Shown: positions 5,691 through 58,877 of the stretch, one piece after another | How positions within the stretch are numbered: position 1 is the first letter of the stretch | How the letters are laid out: each line of letters opens with the position of its first letter | Source: Gemmatimonadaceae bacterium | GTDB lineage: Bacteria; Gemmatimonadota; Gemmatimonadetes; Gemmatimonadales; Gemmatimonadaceae | Direction of reading: 5' to 3' | Assembly (NCBI GenBank): GCA_019186945.1 | Contig: JABAQJ010000006.1 | Coordinates: 62,001 to 126,000 of the forward strand | DNA: 64,000 nt | Made by a program: the position numbers and the translations under genes | Notes under the pieces: model-generated | Told to the model about the DNA's origin: nothing | Databases searched by the model: none | What the model saw: only the letters and a program-made list of their open reading frames with translations

Positions 5691-7727
5691 TCATGTCACC
5701 GGAAGAATAGCCCGCTCCAGTTGTGTCGCCAGCTCCTCACGGTGATGCGTGGGCGCATCGCACACGTACCGCCGGCAGACGTAAGCAGTCGCCATTCCGT
5801 CGATGGCGAGTTTGCCGGCGGTAAGCGCCAGCGGCAACCGACTGCCATGGTCAGCACCTCCAAGCACCAGACTGGGGACGAACTTCTGCGCCACGACCCT
5901 GTGCAGCACTCTGACCCCGTCACTCTCCGGCGCACCAGAAAGTACGACCTGGACAGCACCGTTCACGGCTATGTCTGCCACCGCCAACAAGTTGCCGAAT
6001 CCAAGCGGATTCCTCACCGCGATCTCCCACAGTTGACCGAGTACGCCCTCACCCAGCGAGCGCCAAGTCTCGTCGCCCGCGAACTCGGCGGCCCTGAGGA
6101 GGAGTTCGGCCACAAGACTCTGGCCCGACGGTGTTGCGTTGTCCGCAACGTCCCGCGGACGGGTGACGAGCGTCTCGTGATCGTGCGCGGCATCGAAGAA
6201 TAGCCCACTCGTGCGATCACAAAAGTGCGCGACCGTTGCGCGTGTCAGTTCGAGCGCTCGGCCGATCCACTGGTCGTCGAAGGTCAACTCATAGACGTCC
6301 ATCAGCGCCAGCGCCAGCGAAGCCTGATCCTCGAGGAATCCCGGCACCTTGACCTGTCCGCTCTTGTAGATGCGGAAGACACGCGCATCCCGCACCAGCG
6401 TTCGCCAGAGGAAGTCCGCGTTCGCCAGAGCCACGTCACGCAGATTCGCGTCTTCGAAGGCCGCCGCAGCCTGCGAGATCGACCGGAGCATCAGCGCGTT
6501 CCAGGAGGTCACGACCTTCTCGTCTCGTGCCGGCCAGACGCGACGGCCCCGTGCGGCATAGAGCGACTCCCTAACGCGCGCCATGGCCGACCGCGCAGCT
6601 GGATCGCAAGGCGCATTCCCCCGGGACGGCCTGGCGACGTGCAGAATGTTCGCGCCCTCGAAGTTCCCCGCCTCACTCACACCCCAGACATCGCGGACGA
6701 TCTCGAAGTCCGTCCCGGCGATCCGCCTCAGCTCGGCGTCGCTCCAAGTATAGAAGCGACCCTCATGTCCTTCGCTGTCAGCGTCCAGCGACGAATAGAA
6801 ACCCCCTTCGGGAGACGTCATCTCCCGCCGCAACCACGTCAGTGTCTCCTCCACGCCACGCCGAACCTCGTCGTCATGAGTGACCTTCCACAGGGCCACG
6901 CCAACGCCGACGAAGAGCGCGTTGTCATAGAGCATCTTCTCGAAGTGGGGAACCAGCCATCGGTCGTCGACGGCGTAGCGGTGCAGGCCGCCGCCAACCT
7001 GGTCGTAGATCCCACCGCGGAACATGGCGAGGTATGTGTCGCGAACCATGGACAGCGCTTTCTCGTCACCCGTGCGCGACCAGTGTATGAGCAGAAACCT
7101 CAAGGTCATCGACGGCGGAAACTTCGGTGCGTCTCCGAACCCCGCGTAACGCTCGTCGTAGCTCGCAGTCAGCAACCGCACCGCTTGGTTGAACCCGGCG
7201 TCGGTCAGCGCGCCTGACGCGGGCGGCTGCGAAGGGGCCGAGAGGATCCCGCGCAGCGCGCGCGCCGTCTCCGCGACGCGATCGGGCTGCGCTCGATACG
7301 CGTGTGCGACACCCTGGAGCACGCGGGCAAACGACGGCAGTCCATGACGGTCGTGTTTCGGGAAGTACGTGCCACCAAAGAACGGCACGCCATCAGGCGT
7401 CAGGAAAACCGTCATTGGCCAGCCCCCGGAACCCGTCATTGCCTGCACCGCCTGCATGTAGATCGAATCCAGGTCTGGCCGCTCCTCGCGATCCACCTTG
7501 ATGTTGACGAACGATTCGTTCATCAACTGCGCCGTCGCTTCGTCCTCGAACGACTCATGGGCCATGACATGACACCAGTGACAGGCGGCATAGCCAATAC
7601 TTAGCAGGATGGGCCGATCGAGTTCACGGGCTCGCGCCAGCGCCGCCGGTGACCACGGATACCATTCAACTGGGTTGGCTGCGTGCTGAAGGAGGTACGG
7701 CGAGGTTTCGTTCTTCAGGGCGTTCAT
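5691..7727 (-). CDS. DUF255 thioredoxin-like protein with (alpha/alpha)6 barrel (YyaL/SPATA20 family)
   Basis: The 678-residue product starts MNALKNETSPYLLQHA, the standard N-terminus of this family, which fixes the start at 7727. The thioredoxin-fold domain carries a CxxC in YAACHWCHVM and the conserved SGGWPMTVFLTPDG and GGTYFP segments. The rest is a helical barrel resembling N-acylglucosamine 2-epimerases (for example GGGLHRYAVDDRWLVPHFEKM). The biochemical role of the family is not settled; a redox or sugar-related role is usually proposed. It is divergent from an M20 peptidase gene across 118 bases that must hold both promoters. Confidence 0.92.
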   Translation of the reverse strand: MNALKNETSPYLLQHAANPVEWYPWSPAALARARELDRPILLSIGYAACHWCHVMAHESFEDEATAQLMNESFVNIKVDREERPDLDSIYMQAVQAMTGSGGWPMTVFLTPDGVPFFGGTYFPKHDRHGLPSFARVLQGVAHAYRAQPDRVAETARALRGILSAPSQPPASGALTDAGFNQAVRLLTASYDERYAGFGDAPKFPPSMTLRFLLIHWSRTGDEKALSMVRDTYLAMFRGGIYDQVGGGLHRYAVDDRWLVPHFEKMLYDNALFVGVGVALWKVTHDDEVRRGVEETLTWLRREMTSPEGGFYSSLDADSEGHEGRFYTWSDAELRRIAGTDFEIVRDVWGVSEAGNFEGANILHVARPSRGNAPCDPAARSAMARVRESLYAARGRRVWPARDEKVVTSWNALMLRSISQAAAAFEDANLRDVALANADFLWRTLVRDARVFRIYKSGQVKVPGFLEDQASLALALMDVYELTFDDQWIGRALELTRATVAHFCDRTSGLFFDAAHDHETLVTRPRDVADNATPSGQSLVAELLLRAAEFAGDETWRSLGEGVLGQLWEIAVRNPLGFGNLLAVADIAVNGAVQVVLSGAPESDGVRVLHRVVAQKFVPSLVLGGADHGSRLPLALTAGKLAIDGMATAYVCRRYVCDAPTHHREELATQLERAILPVT

Positions 7728-54031: not shown

Positions 54032-56368
54032 CTACCGCGCCTGGGCGGCGCGTTCCAGCAGGCGTTGCAACTGCTCGCTGCCGGACGTGTAAGGCCACGG
54101 CCACGCCTGCCCTCGCCAGCCCTGCCTGGCGGCGGCGTGCAATGTCCAGTTGGGGTCTGCGAGGTGAGGTCGGGCGAGAGCACACAGGTCGGCTCGGCCG
54201 GCAGCCAGGATCGAGTTCACTTGATCCGGATCCGTAATGCTCCCAACGGCGATGGTGGGGATGCCCACTTCGTTCCGGATGCGGTCGCTGAACGGAGTCT
54301 GCCACATGCGGCCGTACACGGGCCGCGCATCCGGCGACGTCTGTCCGGTCGACACGTGGATGATGTCGGCACCGGCCTCGGCGAAGGCACGCGCGATAGT
54401 GACGGACTCAGCAGCGTCAACACCGCCGTCCACCCAGTCCGTAGCGGAGATCCGGACCGAGATCGGTCGCGCGACGGGCCAGACGTCTCGCACGGCCCGA
54501 AAGACCTCCAGGGGATAACGCAGACGGTTTGCGGTAGTGCCGCCGTACTCGTCGGTCCGCTGGTTCGCGAGCGGCGTCAGAAACGACGAAAGGAGGTAGC
54601 CGTGCGCGCAGTGCAGTTCGAGCATGTCGAAGTCGGCGGTGTTCGCCATCGTCGCCGCCCGGACGAACTCGTCGCGTACGCGATCCATGTCCGAGCGGGT
54701 CATGGCGCCTGGCGTGCGCATGGCTGGAAGATACGGGATCGCAGAGGGCGCCAGCGTATTCCACGCCTCGGCGTCGCTCAGTGGTTCGTCGCCATGCTCC
54801 AGCCCGATCTTCACCGAACCTTTCCGCCCCGAATGCCCTAGTTGCAACGCGATCCGCGCACGGCTCCACTCGTGCACGAAGCGCGTGATTCGCTTCCACG
54901 CTGCCGTGTGAGCGGCGACGTACATGCCCGCACAGCCGGGCGTGATGCGTCCCGTCGGAGACACACACGTCATCTCGGTGACGATCAGGCCCGCACCACC
55001 TAACGCGCGGGCACCGTAATGGACCAGGTGGAAATCGCCCGGCGTGCCATTCTCCGCGCAGTACAAGTCCATTGGCGACACCACGATCCGGTTCTCCAGC
55101 GTCATTCCGCGGAGGACGAATGGCGTGAACATGGGTGGCGGTGGCGCGGAATGCGGCGTGTTCGCCGCCGCCGTCCGGCTCGCGAACCAGCGCTCCACGC
55201 CGGACAGGTATTCTCGATCCCGGAGTCGCAGGTTCTCATGACTCACCCGCTGGCTCCGCGTCAGGAGCGAGTAGGCGAACTGCTCAGCGTCCAGGTGCCA
55301 GTATCGGCCGACGTGCTCGAACCACTCCATGGAGTTACGCGCTGCGCTCTGGATCCGGAGCACCTCCGTCATCCGCGCGTCCTGATAACGCGTCAGTGCC
55401 GCGGCCAGCGCGGCCGGTCGTGTGACGGGATCCTCCATTGTTCCGGCGGTGGCGGACAGTGCCTCGGCCAACGCGATCGCGTCCTCCATCGCCAGCTTGG
55501 TCCCGCTGCCGATCGAGAAATGGGCTGTATGCGCCGCATCGCCCAACAAGACGATGTTGCCAGTGAACCAGGACTCGCAGCCGACCCGCAGGAACGTTAC
55601 CCATGGCGCCGCCTGTCGGTGCGGTGTGGCGTTGTACAGGAGCACGTGTCCGTCCAGCCATGGCGCGAACAGCCGCTCGCACGCAGTGCTGGTTTCGCGT
55701 GCATCCGCGCGGTCGAACCCAGCAGCACGCCACGAGGCTTCGTCGCACTCCACAATGAAGGTCGACAGACCCTCGTCGAACCGATACGCGTGGGCCCAGT
55801 AGTTGCCGGTTTCCGTCTGCACGAAGGCAAACGTGAATGCGTCGAAACGCCGCGTCGTTCCGAACCACACGTACCGGTTGGGTCGATTGTCGAGCGTTGG
55901 GCGGAACTCCGATGCGTGGCGCTCGCGGACCGCGCTGTTGACGCCATCGGCGGCAATGATCAGGTCCGCATCGCCGAGACCCAGGGTGGCGAGCCCCGTC
56001 TCGTCGCGGACGTTGGTGGAAAACCGGAGTTCGACGCCTAACGCGGCCGCACGTTGTTGCAGGATGCGCAACAGCGTGATGCGACCGAGGCCGCTGAATC
56101 CGTGCCCGCTCGATGTGATCGTCCGTCCGTGCACGTGGACGTCGATATCATCCCAATGCGCGAAGTGATCGAGGATGGCTTGATAGCTGTCCGCGTCCGC
56201 CTGCAGGAAGTTCTCCAGCGTCTGGTCGGAGAAAACGACTCCCCAGCCGAACGTGTCGTCCGGCGCGTTTCGTTCCACGACCGCGACCTGCCACGTGGGA
56301 TTGTACTTACGGATGAGCAGCGCCGCGTACAGTCCCGCTGGGCCACCGCCGATCACGGCGACCTTCAC
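54032..56368 (-). CDS. 2-aminobenzoyl-CoA monooxygenase/reductase (salicylyl-CoA 5-hydroxylase type)
   Basis: A 778-residue fusion. Residues 1 to about 390 are an aromatic flavin monooxygenase ([60 protein letters not shown]). Residues from about 405 are an Old Yellow Enzyme-type reductase ([48 protein letters not shown]). This two-domain layout is the signature of ACMR from Azoarcus, which hydroxylates 2-aminobenzoyl-CoA and then reduces the ring, removing aromaticity without a dioxygenase. The close relative salicylyl-CoA 5-hydroxylase is the alternative. It starts with GTG right after the upstream TAG, behind GGAGGC. Confidence 0.93.
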
Positions 56369-56800
56369 CTATTCGCCTCCAAGGAGTCCCTCGCCTTCCA
56401 GTTCCTGACGCAAATCGTCCGGCGGCGAAGCCGGACGCACGAAATACCACCACTGGAGTGCCGGATCCATGGTCTCCGATTCGGCGACCTCGCGTCCCCA
56501 GATCGGCCCGCAGGCGACCGTGGCGCGACGCACGCGGGCGTCCGCGAGCGAGACGCGTCGGCGGAGGGGTGCATCGTCTGGCATTGCCGCCACGTCCAAC
56601 GCGTCTTCCAGGATATCGCGCAGGTCCATGTCGTTCAGATACTCGTCCAGCAAACCGTGGTAACCGCGCTCTATCGAGTCCGTTGTGGTTTCCCACCGGT
56701 CGACAAGACCCGCCAAACCGCCCTCCACGACAAAGTCGGCGCATCCGCGCGCGATCAGGTACTGCCGGACACGCGCCTCAACTTCATCCATCTCGGTCAT
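56369..56800 (-). CDS. Small acidic protein, candidate immunity partner
   Basis: A 143-residue, strongly acidic cytoplasmic protein with no signal and no named domain that I recognise. It has a helical start (MTEMDEVEARVRQYLIARG), a Glu/Asp-rich middle (LDEYLNDMDLRDILEDALD) and a strand-rich end (PALQWWYFVRP). Its ATG lies 17 bases inside the end of the upstream toxin-like gene, and its stop directly abuts the ACMR start, so all three are coupled. Size, acidity and overlap fit an immunity protein. A role in anthranilate metabolism cannot be excluded. Confidence 0.65.
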   Translation of the reverse strand: MTEMDEVEARVRQYLIARGCADFVVEGGLAGLVDRWETTTDSIERGYHGLLDEYLNDMDLRDILEDALDVAAMPDDAPLRRRVSLADARVRRATVACGPIWGREVAESETMDPALQWWYFVRPASPPDDLRQELEGEGLLGGE

Positions 56801-57269
56801 CGGCCATGCCTCTCCTCCGTGCCTGACGCTGAAAGTAGGCCTCTCCGTCGTTCGGACGAAAGAAGGTGCGAATCGTGCCATCCGCGTCGAACGCCACGAA
56901 TGCACCGGATTCCCGGTCGAAACGCGACGCCGTACCGTCGGCACGACGGACTTCGAGGATCGCACCACCCAGGGGCGCGTCCCGCAGTTCCTGCGCGCGC
57001 CGCAGGTACTCGTCGGCTGCAATTTCGCCGAACTCGGCTCCGTGCTTCGCGAAATGCTCTTCCATGAGCTGCCGTGACCGGAAGCCCGCGTCCACGTGCT
57101 CGACCTTCGACGCTTCGGTGGCGGAGCCAATGGCCGTCGTCCGGGCCGCCGTTGGTGGTGGCTCCGCTTTTTCAGCCGACGGCGCGGGTCTGCAAGCCAG
57201 GAACGCACCTGACGTGACGACCGCCATGAACCTGACACACTGTCGCAACGTCTTCAGCCGTACCCCCAT
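56784..57269 (-). CDS. Exported lipoprotein with nuclease-toxin-like C-terminal domain
   Basis: A 161-residue protein with a lipobox (SGAFLAC, Cys26) and a short Pro/Thr-rich linker. Its compact domain (about 60-150) reads LMEEHFAKHGAEFGEIAADEYLRRA, then ASRFDRESGAFVAFDADGTIRTFF. The order H-x-x-KHG-x-EFG-x(6)-EY, then a beta-rich R-[FY]-D/N...F...DG-x-IRT-[FY], matches C-terminal toxin domains of Rhs/CdiA polymorphic toxins with a BECR-type RNase fold, as I remember them. Candidate active residues are His72, Lys75, His76, Arg117, Thr132 and Thr135. GGGGAGG just before the ATG is a strong ribosome site. A non-toxic, domesticated use is also possible. Confidence 0.65.
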   Translation of the reverse strand: MGVRLKTLRQCVRFMAVVTSGAFLACRPAPSAEKAEPPPTAARTTAIGSATEASKVEHVDAGFRSRQLMEEHFAKHGAEFGEIAADEYLRRAQELRDAPLGGAILEVRRADGTASRFDRESGAFVAFDADGTIRTFFRPNDGEAYFQRQARRRGMADDRDG

Positions 57270-57329
57270 GGGCCTCCCCTGTCTCTTGCGACAGAATAGC
57301 GTCGAACACGCGGCACGGCTACGAATCAG

Positions 57330-58877
57330 TCAGGGCTTGCGGAGCCGTGCCGCGGTACGTTTCGCCAGCCAGCCGCGCGCACCGGTCCAGACGACGATCG
57401 TGCCGCAGTCGACAGTCTGAAACTCGGGAGGTGCTTCCATGCGGCGGGGATAGATCTCGACCGCGCGCACGATATGCGTCGGGATCAGGTCGTTGATGTT
57501 CATTCCGTTGAGTGGCACACGCTGGCCGTCGAGAACGATCAGAGGCTCGCATGCTGCGTCCGGACCGTTACCCTCCATGCGCACGTACGCACCGGACATG
57601 CCGCTCGACGAAATGAGGACGCCACGCGTCCCACGCAGGAGATCCGAGAACTGCTGAGGCGACCGTCGCTCGATCTGCTCGGCATCGAGGAACGCGCCGT
57701 AGCCCTGCCGCCGTCGATACTCGAACGATCCGGGTGACGTGGCCATCCGTGGACGCGTCGCGAGCACACGCACCGTGTCGATCTCGGTCGGGAAGTCCGA
57801 CATGCTCACGTCCGCATGCATCGGCCGCTGCGCGAACAGGTCAATGGCGGTACGCGACGGCACGAAACCGATGGCACGGACTTCCAGCGTGTGCGATCCC
57901 GGAGCGACGTCCCCGATCGCATACTCGCCGTCCGCATTCGTGATCGCGCTGTACCGGGTTCCCCATATGCTCACGCGTGCACCAGCGATCGGATCGCCGT
58001 ACCGGCCGCGGATCGTTCCCGTCAGCCGCACTCGTCCTTCGCGCGTGGGCAGGAGCCCCGTCGCCCCAGCGCGCACGATGCGTCGCCCGTCGGAATCCCC
58101 GAGGACGACCGGATTCTCCGAGCCAACGTCAGCATCGGTCGCGCGAGCGACGGATTGGCTGCTCAGGTACATTCCGCGAAGCAGGATGCCGTGATCGGGA
58201 AGCTCGATCTCGACGAACGATCCGGTGTCCGCGCCAGCACTCACGCGCAGCAGCGCGAGTGAGCGATGCGGAATGCCGCACAGGCCGAACCAACCGCCCG
58301 GACCGGTTACCGTCGTTGCCTGGCGGGTCGCCGCCCGCGCGCCGCTCTCGTCGATGATGATCTCGCTCCACCGGGCGAGGATCTCGGCGTGCTCGCGCGT
58401 GCTGCCGTCTTCGGGACGCAGTACGTAACCGGCGACAAACCCGGACGAATCCTCGAGCGCGGACCGACCGCACGCTGCCTCGACGATCGATCGCGGCGAC
58501 GGCACGGAGAGGTCGAGCCCGTTCGCACCGTCCCCGGGGATCCGAACGCGACGGACAGGCGCCTCCATGCCTAACGAATCGAGCTTGGGATGAAAGAACC
58601 CGACCATCATCGCGCCATCGGGGACGCCCGCGATCTCATAACGACCGTCCACGTCCGCTACGCCGCTCAGCCGCACGGTTCGTTCCGGGTCGACTCCGAG
58701 CAGCATGAGCTGAACGATGGCGCCACCCAGAGGCTGGCGGGCAACGCTGTCGTATACGAACCCGCGAATGACATGCGACGAACGCAAGTCGGCGGGGGCC
58801 TCCTGCGCTCCGGCGCCTCCAACCGCGGTCCCGGCAGCGATCAGGGCAAGCGCGAATACACGGATACGACGGTTCAC
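57330..58877 (-). CDS. Carboxypeptidase-regulatory and TonB-plug domain protein, no barrel
   Basis: A 515-residue exported protein (signal ALALIAAGTAVGGAGAQ). It has an N-terminal CarboxypepD_reg-like domain (IRGFVYDSVARQPLGGAIVQL). A second lies at about 285-370 (LTGTIRGRYGDPIAGARVSIWGT). A plug-like domain ends it (FSDLLRGTRGVLIS, CEPLIVLDGQRVPLNGMNINDL, VRAVEIYPRRMEAPPEFQ). The transmembrane barrel of a TonB-dependent receptor is absent. It starts with GTG and overlaps the 3-hydroxyacyl-CoA dehydrogenase stop (GTGA). It may sit at the outer membrane and work with a separate receptor. Confidence 0.8.
   Translation of the reverse strand: MNRRIRVFALALIAAGTAVGGAGAQEAPADLRSSHVIRGFVYDSVARQPLGGAIVQLMLLGVDPERTVRLSGVADVDGRYEIAGVPDGAMMVGFFHPKLDSLGMEAPVRRVRIPGDGANGLDLSVPSPRSIVEAACGRSALEDSSGFVAGYVLRPEDGSTREHAEILARWSEIIIDESGARAATRQATTVTGPGGWFGLCGIPHRSLALLRVSAGADTGSFVEIELPDHGILLRGMYLSSQSVARATDADVGSENPVVLGDSDGRRIVRAGATGLLPTREGRVRLTGTIRGRYGDPIAGARVSIWGTRYSAITNADGEYAIGDVAPGSHTLEVRAIGFVPSRTAIDLFAQRPMHADVSMSDFPTEIDTVRVLATRPRMATSPGSFEYRRRQGYGAFLDAEQIERRSPQQFSDLLRGTRGVLISSSGMSGAYVRMEGNGPDAACEPLIVLDGQRVPLNGMNINDLIPTHIVRAVEIYPRRMEAPPEFQTVDCGTIVVWTGARGWLAKRTAARLRKP

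What the first reader, a model, noticed from the sequence alone, without database searches (positions are those of the whole stretch)
56369..57269. Toxin/immunity-like pair embedded in an anthranilate-degradation operon
The lipoprotein at 56784-57269 carries a compact domain with the H-x2-KHG-x-EFG and DG-x-IRT-F pattern that I associate with polymorphic-toxin RNase domains. The next gene, overlapping by 17 bases, is a small acidic protein that then abuts the ACMR start. Toxin and immunity genes usually sit in Rhs, T6SS or CDI loci, not between a plug-like protein and a catabolic flavoenzyme. A lipid-anchored toxin domain without a delivery module would be unusual.
Basis: partly seen in the sequence, partly recalled or inferred. 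Interest (0 to 1): 0.72.

Follow-up and report, generated by a model that had tools for sequence, protein, structure and literature searches.

The report
Exported RNase toxin with cytosolic immunity
Two overlapping genes look like an exported RNA-cutting toxin and the protein that protects its maker; the same two-gene unit, not yet a named family, recurs in several bacterial phyla beside ordinary genes rather than beside a known toxin-delivery machine.

Summary
In detail: both ORFs, the motifs, the 17-base overlap and the abutting flavoenzyme start are present. The toxin reading is supported. The 161-aa protein has an export signal and one nuclease domain related by sequence (profile E=1.1e-9) and predicted fold (Foldseek E=3.3e-6, TM 0.84) to a contact-dependent-inhibition toxin of E. 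coli O32:H37, more distantly to colicin D. Predicted active-site residues are invariant or nearly so in 69 aligned cores. The partner lies downstream in 76 of 80 loci. In 395 Gemmatimonadota genomes, 36 of 37 toxin matches have it adjacent, while 8 genomes keep a strong partner match without toxin; two decayed toxins sit beside an intact partner.

The setting needs correction. The pair is not tied to ACMR: a same-genus genome has the operon without it, and other clades carry the pair beside other genes. Export is general (86 of 89 toxins, 0 of 76 partners); a lipobox pattern is a minority trait (22 of 89).

Best explanation: a barnase/barstar-style pair, an exported colicin D-like RNase plus cytosolic inhibitor. 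Activity, binding and delivery are untested. New variant of a known kind.

The parts
56784..57269 (-). toxin gene: 161-aa exported protein with one C-terminal nuclease domain
   Evidence: ORF; sequence and fold match to CDI toxin 8ey4
57273..57280 (-). Shine-Dalgarno-like AGGGGAGG ahead of the toxin ATG
   Evidence: read directly in the sequence; not tested
57192..57269 (-). export signal of the toxin (residues 1-26), lipobox-like AFLAC ending at Cys26
   Evidence: by eye; 86 of 89 relatives have a hydrophobic segment here, 22 of 89 with a lipobox pattern (the window's own protein was not among those rows)
57087..57191 (-). Pro/Ala-rich linker (residues 27-61)
   Evidence: sequence; in Bryobacterales relatives the linker is nearly absent
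56823..57086 (-). nuclease core (residues 62-149)
   Evidence: alignments A1 and A3; AF2 model mean pLDDT 83.9; 8ey4_A Foldseek E=3.3e-6
57030..57056 (-). active-site helix motif HFAKHGAEF (residues 72-80)
   Evidence: two His and Glu 69 of 69, Lys 68 of 69; fits Hxx[ED] of Tox-Colicin D (PMC3482391)
56862..56873 (-). IRTF strand (residues 133-136), predicted catalytic Thr135
   Evidence: Thr 69 of 69, Arg 68 of 69
56369..56800 (-). partner (immunity-like) gene: 143 aa, acidic, no export segment, predicted mostly helical
   Evidence: ORF; downstream of the toxin in 76 of 80 loci; AF2 mean pLDDT 95.4; 0 of 76 partners with an export segment

Best explanation
This is a self-contained toxin-immunity pair built like barnase and barstar. 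The first protein is exported (Sec; by lipobox, membrane anchor or cleavable signal) and carries a BECR-fold RNase of the colicin D / CdiA-CT type. The second stays in the cytosol and inhibits the RNase there, protecting the producer from toxin that is not yet exported or that returns. Shown: homology, fold, conserved active-site pattern, compartment split by sequence, tight pairing, and loss of toxin with retained partner. Inferred: that it cuts RNA (probably tRNA), that the partner binds the active site, and that the exported toxin harms neighbouring cells. How it would enter a target is unknown. The first two rivals share these parts and differ only in what the exported RNase is for, so the odds given do not sum to one.
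For: Sequence: 8ey4_A E=2e-5 as single sequence, 1.7e-8, 1.1e-9 with 69 rows. Fold: 8ey4 E=3.3e-6, TM 0.84; colicin D next at 4e-3 to 1.3e-2; VIA Z 12.9 (86 aligned, 2.4 A) and 8.0-8.3 for three colicin D entries. The O32:H37 P4 toxin type, presumably that of 8ey4, is listed as RNase (PMC11630599 table passage); the characterised BECR CdiA tips are described as tRNases but for one rRNase (PMC9086364, passages). The domain lies under Rhs, FHA/CdiA or SAR2788 annotations in 16 of 21 plasmid records, at the C-terminus in the three opened. Active-site columns. Partner downstream in 76 of 80, overlapping or within 30 nt in 66 of 76. 36 of 37 toxin matches paired, 8 genomes with strong partner and no toxin. 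G035 keeps the toxin's N-terminus but not the nuclease domain, G107 a 44-aa remnant, both with an open partner frame. Exported toxin against cytosolic partner. 66 of 76 pairs are basic core / acidic partner. Toxin core dN/dS 0.03-0.37 in the close pairs listed.
Against: No activity or binding was tested and no complex was modelled. The window's own core is acidic (pI 5.4, net -3), unlike most relatives. Three toxin loci (L144, L148, L168) have no recognisable partner. The domain is unusually conserved for a weapon (55-71% identity to the window's core) and mostly follows phylum labels (14 changes against 33.2 shuffled), so a housekeeping role is open. An enoyl-CoA hydratase-family gene lies near the pair both here and in 20 Alphaproteobacteria-type loci, which is unexplained.
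Confidence: 0.7

Rival explanations
1. SitA-like lipoprotein toxin: the exported RNase is handed to neighbours by outer-membrane exchange or vesicles, and kin are protected by the partner.
For: SitA toxins are lipoproteins with C-terminal nuclease domains and a downstream immunity gene, without a specialised export apparatus (PMC5562445, passages; PMC8546572, passages). The window protein (by eye) and 22 of 89 relatives show a lipobox pattern.
Against: No escort-like domain between signal and nuclease; the nuclease is constant, not polymorphic; most relatives look TM-anchored or have a plain signal. TraA/TraB were not searched.
Confidence: 0.15
2. Exported RNA-scavenging or envelope RNase; the partner is only a safety inhibitor and there is no antagonism.
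For: High conservation, purifying selection and inheritance that mostly follows phylum; nine nearest neighbours from nine loci hold no delivery family.
Against: Patchy presence (37 of 395 Gemmatimonadota genomes); toxin loss with partner kept suggests that immunity alone is useful; the closest relatives are interbacterial toxins.
Confidence: 0.2
3. Intracellular type II toxin-antitoxin pair.
For: The fold is shared more distantly with BrnT and HigB/RelE-type toxins; overlapping genes.
Against: Export segment in 86 of 89 toxins; toxin gene first. The partner model has no confident structural match of any kind, so it neither supports nor excludes an antitoxin fold.
Confidence: 0.05
4. Metabolic accessory of the ACMR operon, or of CoA-thioester catabolism more widely.
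For: Synteny with ACMR in 6 genomes including this one. An enoyl-CoA hydratase-family gene (25-32% identical to the window's) also lies near the pair in 20 Alphaproteobacteria-type loci.
Against: 44 ACMR genomes without a real toxin match and 9 with it elsewhere; G028 has the operon without the pair. Hydratase-family genes are common: 37, 63, 40 and 60 matches in four such genomes of 6.0-9.1 Mb, with the 63-66% identical copy (in three of the four) away from the pair. Those loci are one clade, so the recurrence may be one event. Other clades have other neighbours.
Confidence: 0.03

Closest known systems
CDI toxin of E. coli O32:H37 (PDB 8ey4; presumably type 7 of PMC11630599)
   Same: nuclease domain by sequence (E=1.1e-9) and fold (TM 0.84); H-x2-KHG-x-EF and RT-x-F-x-P signatures align
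   Different: there the tip of a CdiA effector with an entry domain; here a 161-aa exported single-domain protein
Colicin D tRNase domain and ImmD (1v74)
   Same: BECR fold, VIA Z 7.2-8.3 over four entries; Hxx[ED] and [ST] motifs
   Different: 11-13% identity; no receptor or translocation domains; partner not matched to a colicin immunity family
Barnase-barstar
   Same: exported RNase plus inhibitor as a simple, non-polymorphic gene pair; Zhang 2012 calls such pairs a possible incipient TI order (PMC3482391, passages)
   Different: different RNase subfamily; partner predicted mostly helical, not the alpha/beta barstar fold; often membrane- or lipid-anchored
SitA/SitI of myxobacteria
   Same: lipoprotein nuclease toxin with downstream immunity gene
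   Different: no escort domain and no polymorphism here; delivery by exchange untested
SAR2788, Rhs and FHA toxin tips; phage portal/minor-head fusions (PHROG 15528)
   Same: same domain
   Different: other carriers; in the three toxin loci opened no partner of this family lies nearby

Membership tests
BECR-fold nucleases | alpha+beta BECR fold | tested here: met
   AF2 model; Foldseek 8ey4 and colicin D, VIA Z 12.9 and 8.0-8.3
BECR-fold nucleases | RNase activity | not testable with these tools
   needs an assay
Tox-Colicin D (Zhang 2012) | [KH]K, Hxx[ED], [ST], [TS]xxK motifs | tested here: inconclusive
   Hxx[ED] and an invariant Thr in 69 of 69; the [KH]K pair is not strictly there, but a His lies 4 and a Lys 1 before the motif His; [TS]xxK not checked
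Tox-Colicin D (Zhang 2012) | match to a named Pfam or NCBIfam toxin family | tested here: not met
   no toxin family in 69 members; stray single-member matches only
CDI toxin of the 8ey4 kind | homologous toxin domain | tested here: met
   E=1.1e-9
CDI toxin of the 8ey4 kind | large CdiA carrier with entry domain | tested here: not met
   161 aa, export signal plus one domain
CDI toxin of the 8ey4 kind | CdiB partner in the genome | tested here: inconclusive
   only a partial ShlB match below cut-off in the own genome; partial matches in 13 of 17 toxin genomes
SitA/SitI | lipoprotein signal | tested here: inconclusive
   AFLAC by eye; lipobox pattern in 22 of 89 relatives
SitA/SitI | escort domain and polymorphic C-terminus | tested here: not met
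   only a low-complexity linker, or nearly none, before a constant domain
SitA/SitI | TraA/TraB exchange, SitB | not tested
   no search made
Barnase-barstar | exported RNase-fold protein with non-exported partner, paired genes | tested here: met
   86 of 89 against 0 of 76; 76 of 80
Barnase-barstar | partner homologous to barstar | tested here: not met
   no barstar match in 68 partners (Pfam); predicted mostly helical
T6SS effector | T6SS sheath gene in the genome | tested here: not met
   no VipB in G000; VipB in 4 of 17 toxin genomes

The most novel reading that the evidence does not exclude
A conserved, non-polymorphic exported tRNase/inhibitor module, spread over several diderm phyla, in which each cell holds an anchored tRNase in its own envelope and only cells with the cytosolic inhibitor survive when envelopes mix (vesicles, exchange, predation, lysis): antagonism or kin control without a dedicated secretion apparatus.
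Probability: 0.25. Interest if true: 0.78.

Novelty: new variant of a known kind. Interest (0 to 1): 0.58.

Why it matters
Toxin tips of this kind are usually met at the end of a large carrier. Here the bare domain with an export signal and its own immunity gene persists at 55-71% identity across phyla, has no named family in Pfam or NCBIfam, and occurs in isolates as well as MAGs (Reyranella aquatilis KCTC 52223 and Vineibacter terrae CC-CFT640). If it poisons neighbours, it asks how a nuclease reaches a target cytosol without a needle or stalk. If not, it asks why an envelope RNase needs an inhibitor that can outlive it. It also offers a second version of the barnase-barstar arrangement, with an unrelated-looking inhibitor, in diderm bacteria.

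Tried and rejected
Family libraries: no match for the window's two proteins in Pfam, NCBIfam or PADLOC. For aligned relatives only stray matches: Pfam, one family in one of 69 toxins and two families in one each of 68 partners at E up to 0.01; NCBIfam, at most one of 69 toxins and two of 68 partners (RecX, E 0.0012) at E up to 0.1; earlier smaller sets likewise. Partner fold: best Foldseek E 2.2, best VIA Z 5.2; partner profile against PDB sequences: a de novo helical barrel at E 0.00055 with no stretch passing, 0.11 with the larger alignment. No structural family is claimed; ImmD, Imm64 and the immunity chain of 8ey4 are not excluded. Partner against plasmids: none. IMG/VR: 16 relatives at 29-34% identity; architecture not examined.

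Rows dropped: P0001 hits in G006, G065, G083, G105, G123, G131, G145 (E 0.0018-0.0093) and P0002 hits in G010, G027, G089, G105, G124, G129, G143 (E 4.7e-4 to 0.009), taken as chance. In one search, 10 Gemmatimonadota rows (8 duplicates of later loci, 2 truncated) were left out, giving 90 rows, 89 with enough upstream sequence; the 3 below threshold are L092 (lipobox present), L148 (cut by contig end) and L166. Some of the 80 loci are the same places as G-handle loci, and some are near copies (60 remain at under 86% identity, 57 of them with partner). Start codons were chosen by script and are doubtful in a few rows. One search's tree has few columns and many open forks; labels follow submitters' titles and some bins may be mixed. 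Papers: no description of this pair seen in the listings.

Full report
WHAT IS THERE. On the minus strand, ORF 56784-57269 (161 aa) overlaps ORF 56369-56800 (143 aa) by 17 bases, and the latter's stop directly abuts the GTG of the ACMR-like ORF at 56368. The first ORF starts with a hydrophobic segment ending in AFLAC (Cys26), lipobox-like by eye. Upstream is a 515-aa CarboxypepD_reg/Plug protein; downstream are the ACMR-like, enoyl-CoA hydratase-family, acyl-CoA dehydrogenase and AMP-binding genes.

THE DOMAIN. Neither protein matches a Pfam or NCBIfam family. Against all PDB sequences the toxin has one match at E up to 10: 8ey4_A, E=2e-5 as a single sequence, 1.7e-8 with 19 rows, 1.1e-9 with 69 rows. 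The AF2 model (mean pLDDT 83.9) gives 8ey4_A first (E=3.3e-6, TM 0.84 on the target), then four colicin D entries in five rows (E 4e-3 to 1.3e-2). VIA gives Z 12.9 for 8ey4 (86 residues, 2.4 A); colicin D entries follow at 8.3 (rmsd 9.6), 8.2, 8.0 and 7.2, then other toxins, among them BrnT and CdiA tips. 8ey4 is a contact-dependent-inhibition toxin-immunity complex of E. coli O32:H37; a table in PMC11630599 (one passage read) lists the O32:H37 P4 toxin type, presumably the same, as RNase. PMC9086364 (passages) describes the characterised BECR CdiA tips as tRNases but for one rRNase. In plasmid records 16 of 21 matches lie under SAR2788 (10), Rhs (2) or hemagglutinin/CdiA (4) annotations; in the three opened the match ends at the C-terminus. 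In phages 17 records match, some under portal, capsid or minor head proteins (PHROG 15528 E=2.1e-11).

ACTIVE SITE. In 69 aligned cores the two His and the Glu of H-x2-KH-x2-E are 69 of 69, the Lys 68, the Thr of IRTF 69 and its Arg 68. PMC3482391 (passages) gives Hxx[ED] and [ST] among the Tox-Colicin D motifs; its [KH]K pair is not strictly present here.

DISTRIBUTION AND PAIRING. One scan of genome contigs found 303 confirmed relatives; 80 were kept. A partner homologue lies downstream on the same strand in 76 of 80. Exceptions: L155 ends just after the toxin; L144, L148 and L168 have none recognisable. The genes overlap in 37 of 76, are 0-30 nt apart in 29 and further (to 272 nt) in 10. 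In 395 Gemmatimonadota genomes, 37 have a toxin match and 48 a partner match. 36 of 37 toxin matches have the partner directly downstream; the exception, G325, is a broken toxin. Eight genomes have a strong partner match and no toxin, and four more only a weaker partner match. In G107 a 44-aa remnant precedes an open partner frame. In G035 the toxin's N-terminus remains (45.6% and 40.9% identity to two same-genus toxins), the toxin region is about 260 bases shorter than in G058, no nuclease core is found, and the partner is open. This asymmetry is what a toxin and its immunity gene would give.

EXPORT. 86 of 89 toxins with enough upstream sequence have a hydrophobic segment before the core; 0 of 76 partners do. 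Only 22 of 89 show a lipobox pattern: others look TM-anchored (Reyranella group) or carry a signal ending close to the core (Bryobacterales). So 'exported' is general and 'lipid-anchored' is not. Core and partner are positive and negative in 66 of 76 pairs; the window's own core (net -3) does not fit.

CONTEXT. The ACMR link is lineage synteny. An ACMR match occurs in 60 of 149 relatives; 16 of these have a real toxin match, beside ACMR in 6 (own, G025, G052, G053, G074, G088), elsewhere in 9, undecidable in 1. G028, of the same genus as G053, G074 and G088, has plug-like genes, ACMR, hydratase and dehydrogenase in order with no trace of the pair. Most neighbour clusters stay within one clade, but some join Gemmatimonadota and Alphaproteobacteria loci: a hydratase-family gene 25-32% identical to the window's lies in 20 Alphaproteobacteria-type loci, often just downstream. 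Four such genomes hold 37, 63, 40 and 60 hydratase-family matches, and in three the 63-66% identical copy is elsewhere, so I read this as one clade's synteny with a common family; it is not excluded as a signal. Nearest neighbours from nine other loci are a urate oxidase N-terminal protein, a short-chain dehydrogenase, DUF4136, a PAPS reductase-type protein, a pyridine nucleotide-disulphide oxidoreductase, a cupin, a PCYCGC protein and two without a match; none is a delivery family. The own genome has no T6SS sheath gene VipB; 4 of 17 toxin genomes do. ShlB matches are partial. TraA/TraB were not searched.

EVOLUTION. Cores are 55-71% identical to the window's. dN/dS is 0.03-0.37 for toxin cores in the close pairs listed; partners range higher, to 0.90, with dS saturated in some. 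The 58-row tree needs 14 phylum changes (least possible 8, shuffled mean 33.2; few columns, many open forks). That is steadier than I would expect of polymorphic toxin tips. In some Reyranella-group pairs, toxins 76-79% identical have partners only 33-38% identical.

READING. The best account is an exported colicin D/CdiA-type RNase with a cytosolic inhibitor, arranged like barnase and barstar. Zhang 2012 writes that simple barnase-barstar pairs might be an incipient toxin-immunity order without notable polymorphism. SitA (PMC5562445 and PMC8546572, passages) is the precedent for lipoprotein toxins but has escort domains and polymorphic tips, not seen here. Catalysis, inhibition, target and delivery remain to be shown.

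Noticed in passing
L148:2-415 and L148:4194-4835: An Acidimicrobiia MAG contig has two copies of the toxin domain and no recognisable partner.
   Followed up: partly
L144:2-292 and L168:5866-6285: Very similar toxins in a Fimbriimonadaceae and a Methanoregulaceae bin read ITF in place of RTF and lack the partner; perhaps one mis-binned organism.
   Followed up: partly
G047:C1:1392975-1393283 and similar places in genus g22: A second, diverged partner homologue sits away from the pair in 16 genomes of this genus, and alone in G294, G321 and G351.
   Followed up: partly
L116 against L138, L158, L159: Toxins 76-79% identical but partners only 33-35% identical, as if the partner had been replaced or had diverged fast.
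   Followed up: no
L159 about 6724-7389 and 19 other Alphaproteobacteria-type loci: An enoyl-CoA hydratase-family gene lies near the pair, as a different one does in the window's clade.
   Followed up: partly
window 57330-58877: Plug-like protein with CarboxypepD_reg and Plug matches but only 515 aa; two or three tandem homologues in some relatives.
   Followed up: no
phage portal/minor head proteins: The same nuclease domain is matched in phage head proteins (PHROG 15528).
   Followed up: partly
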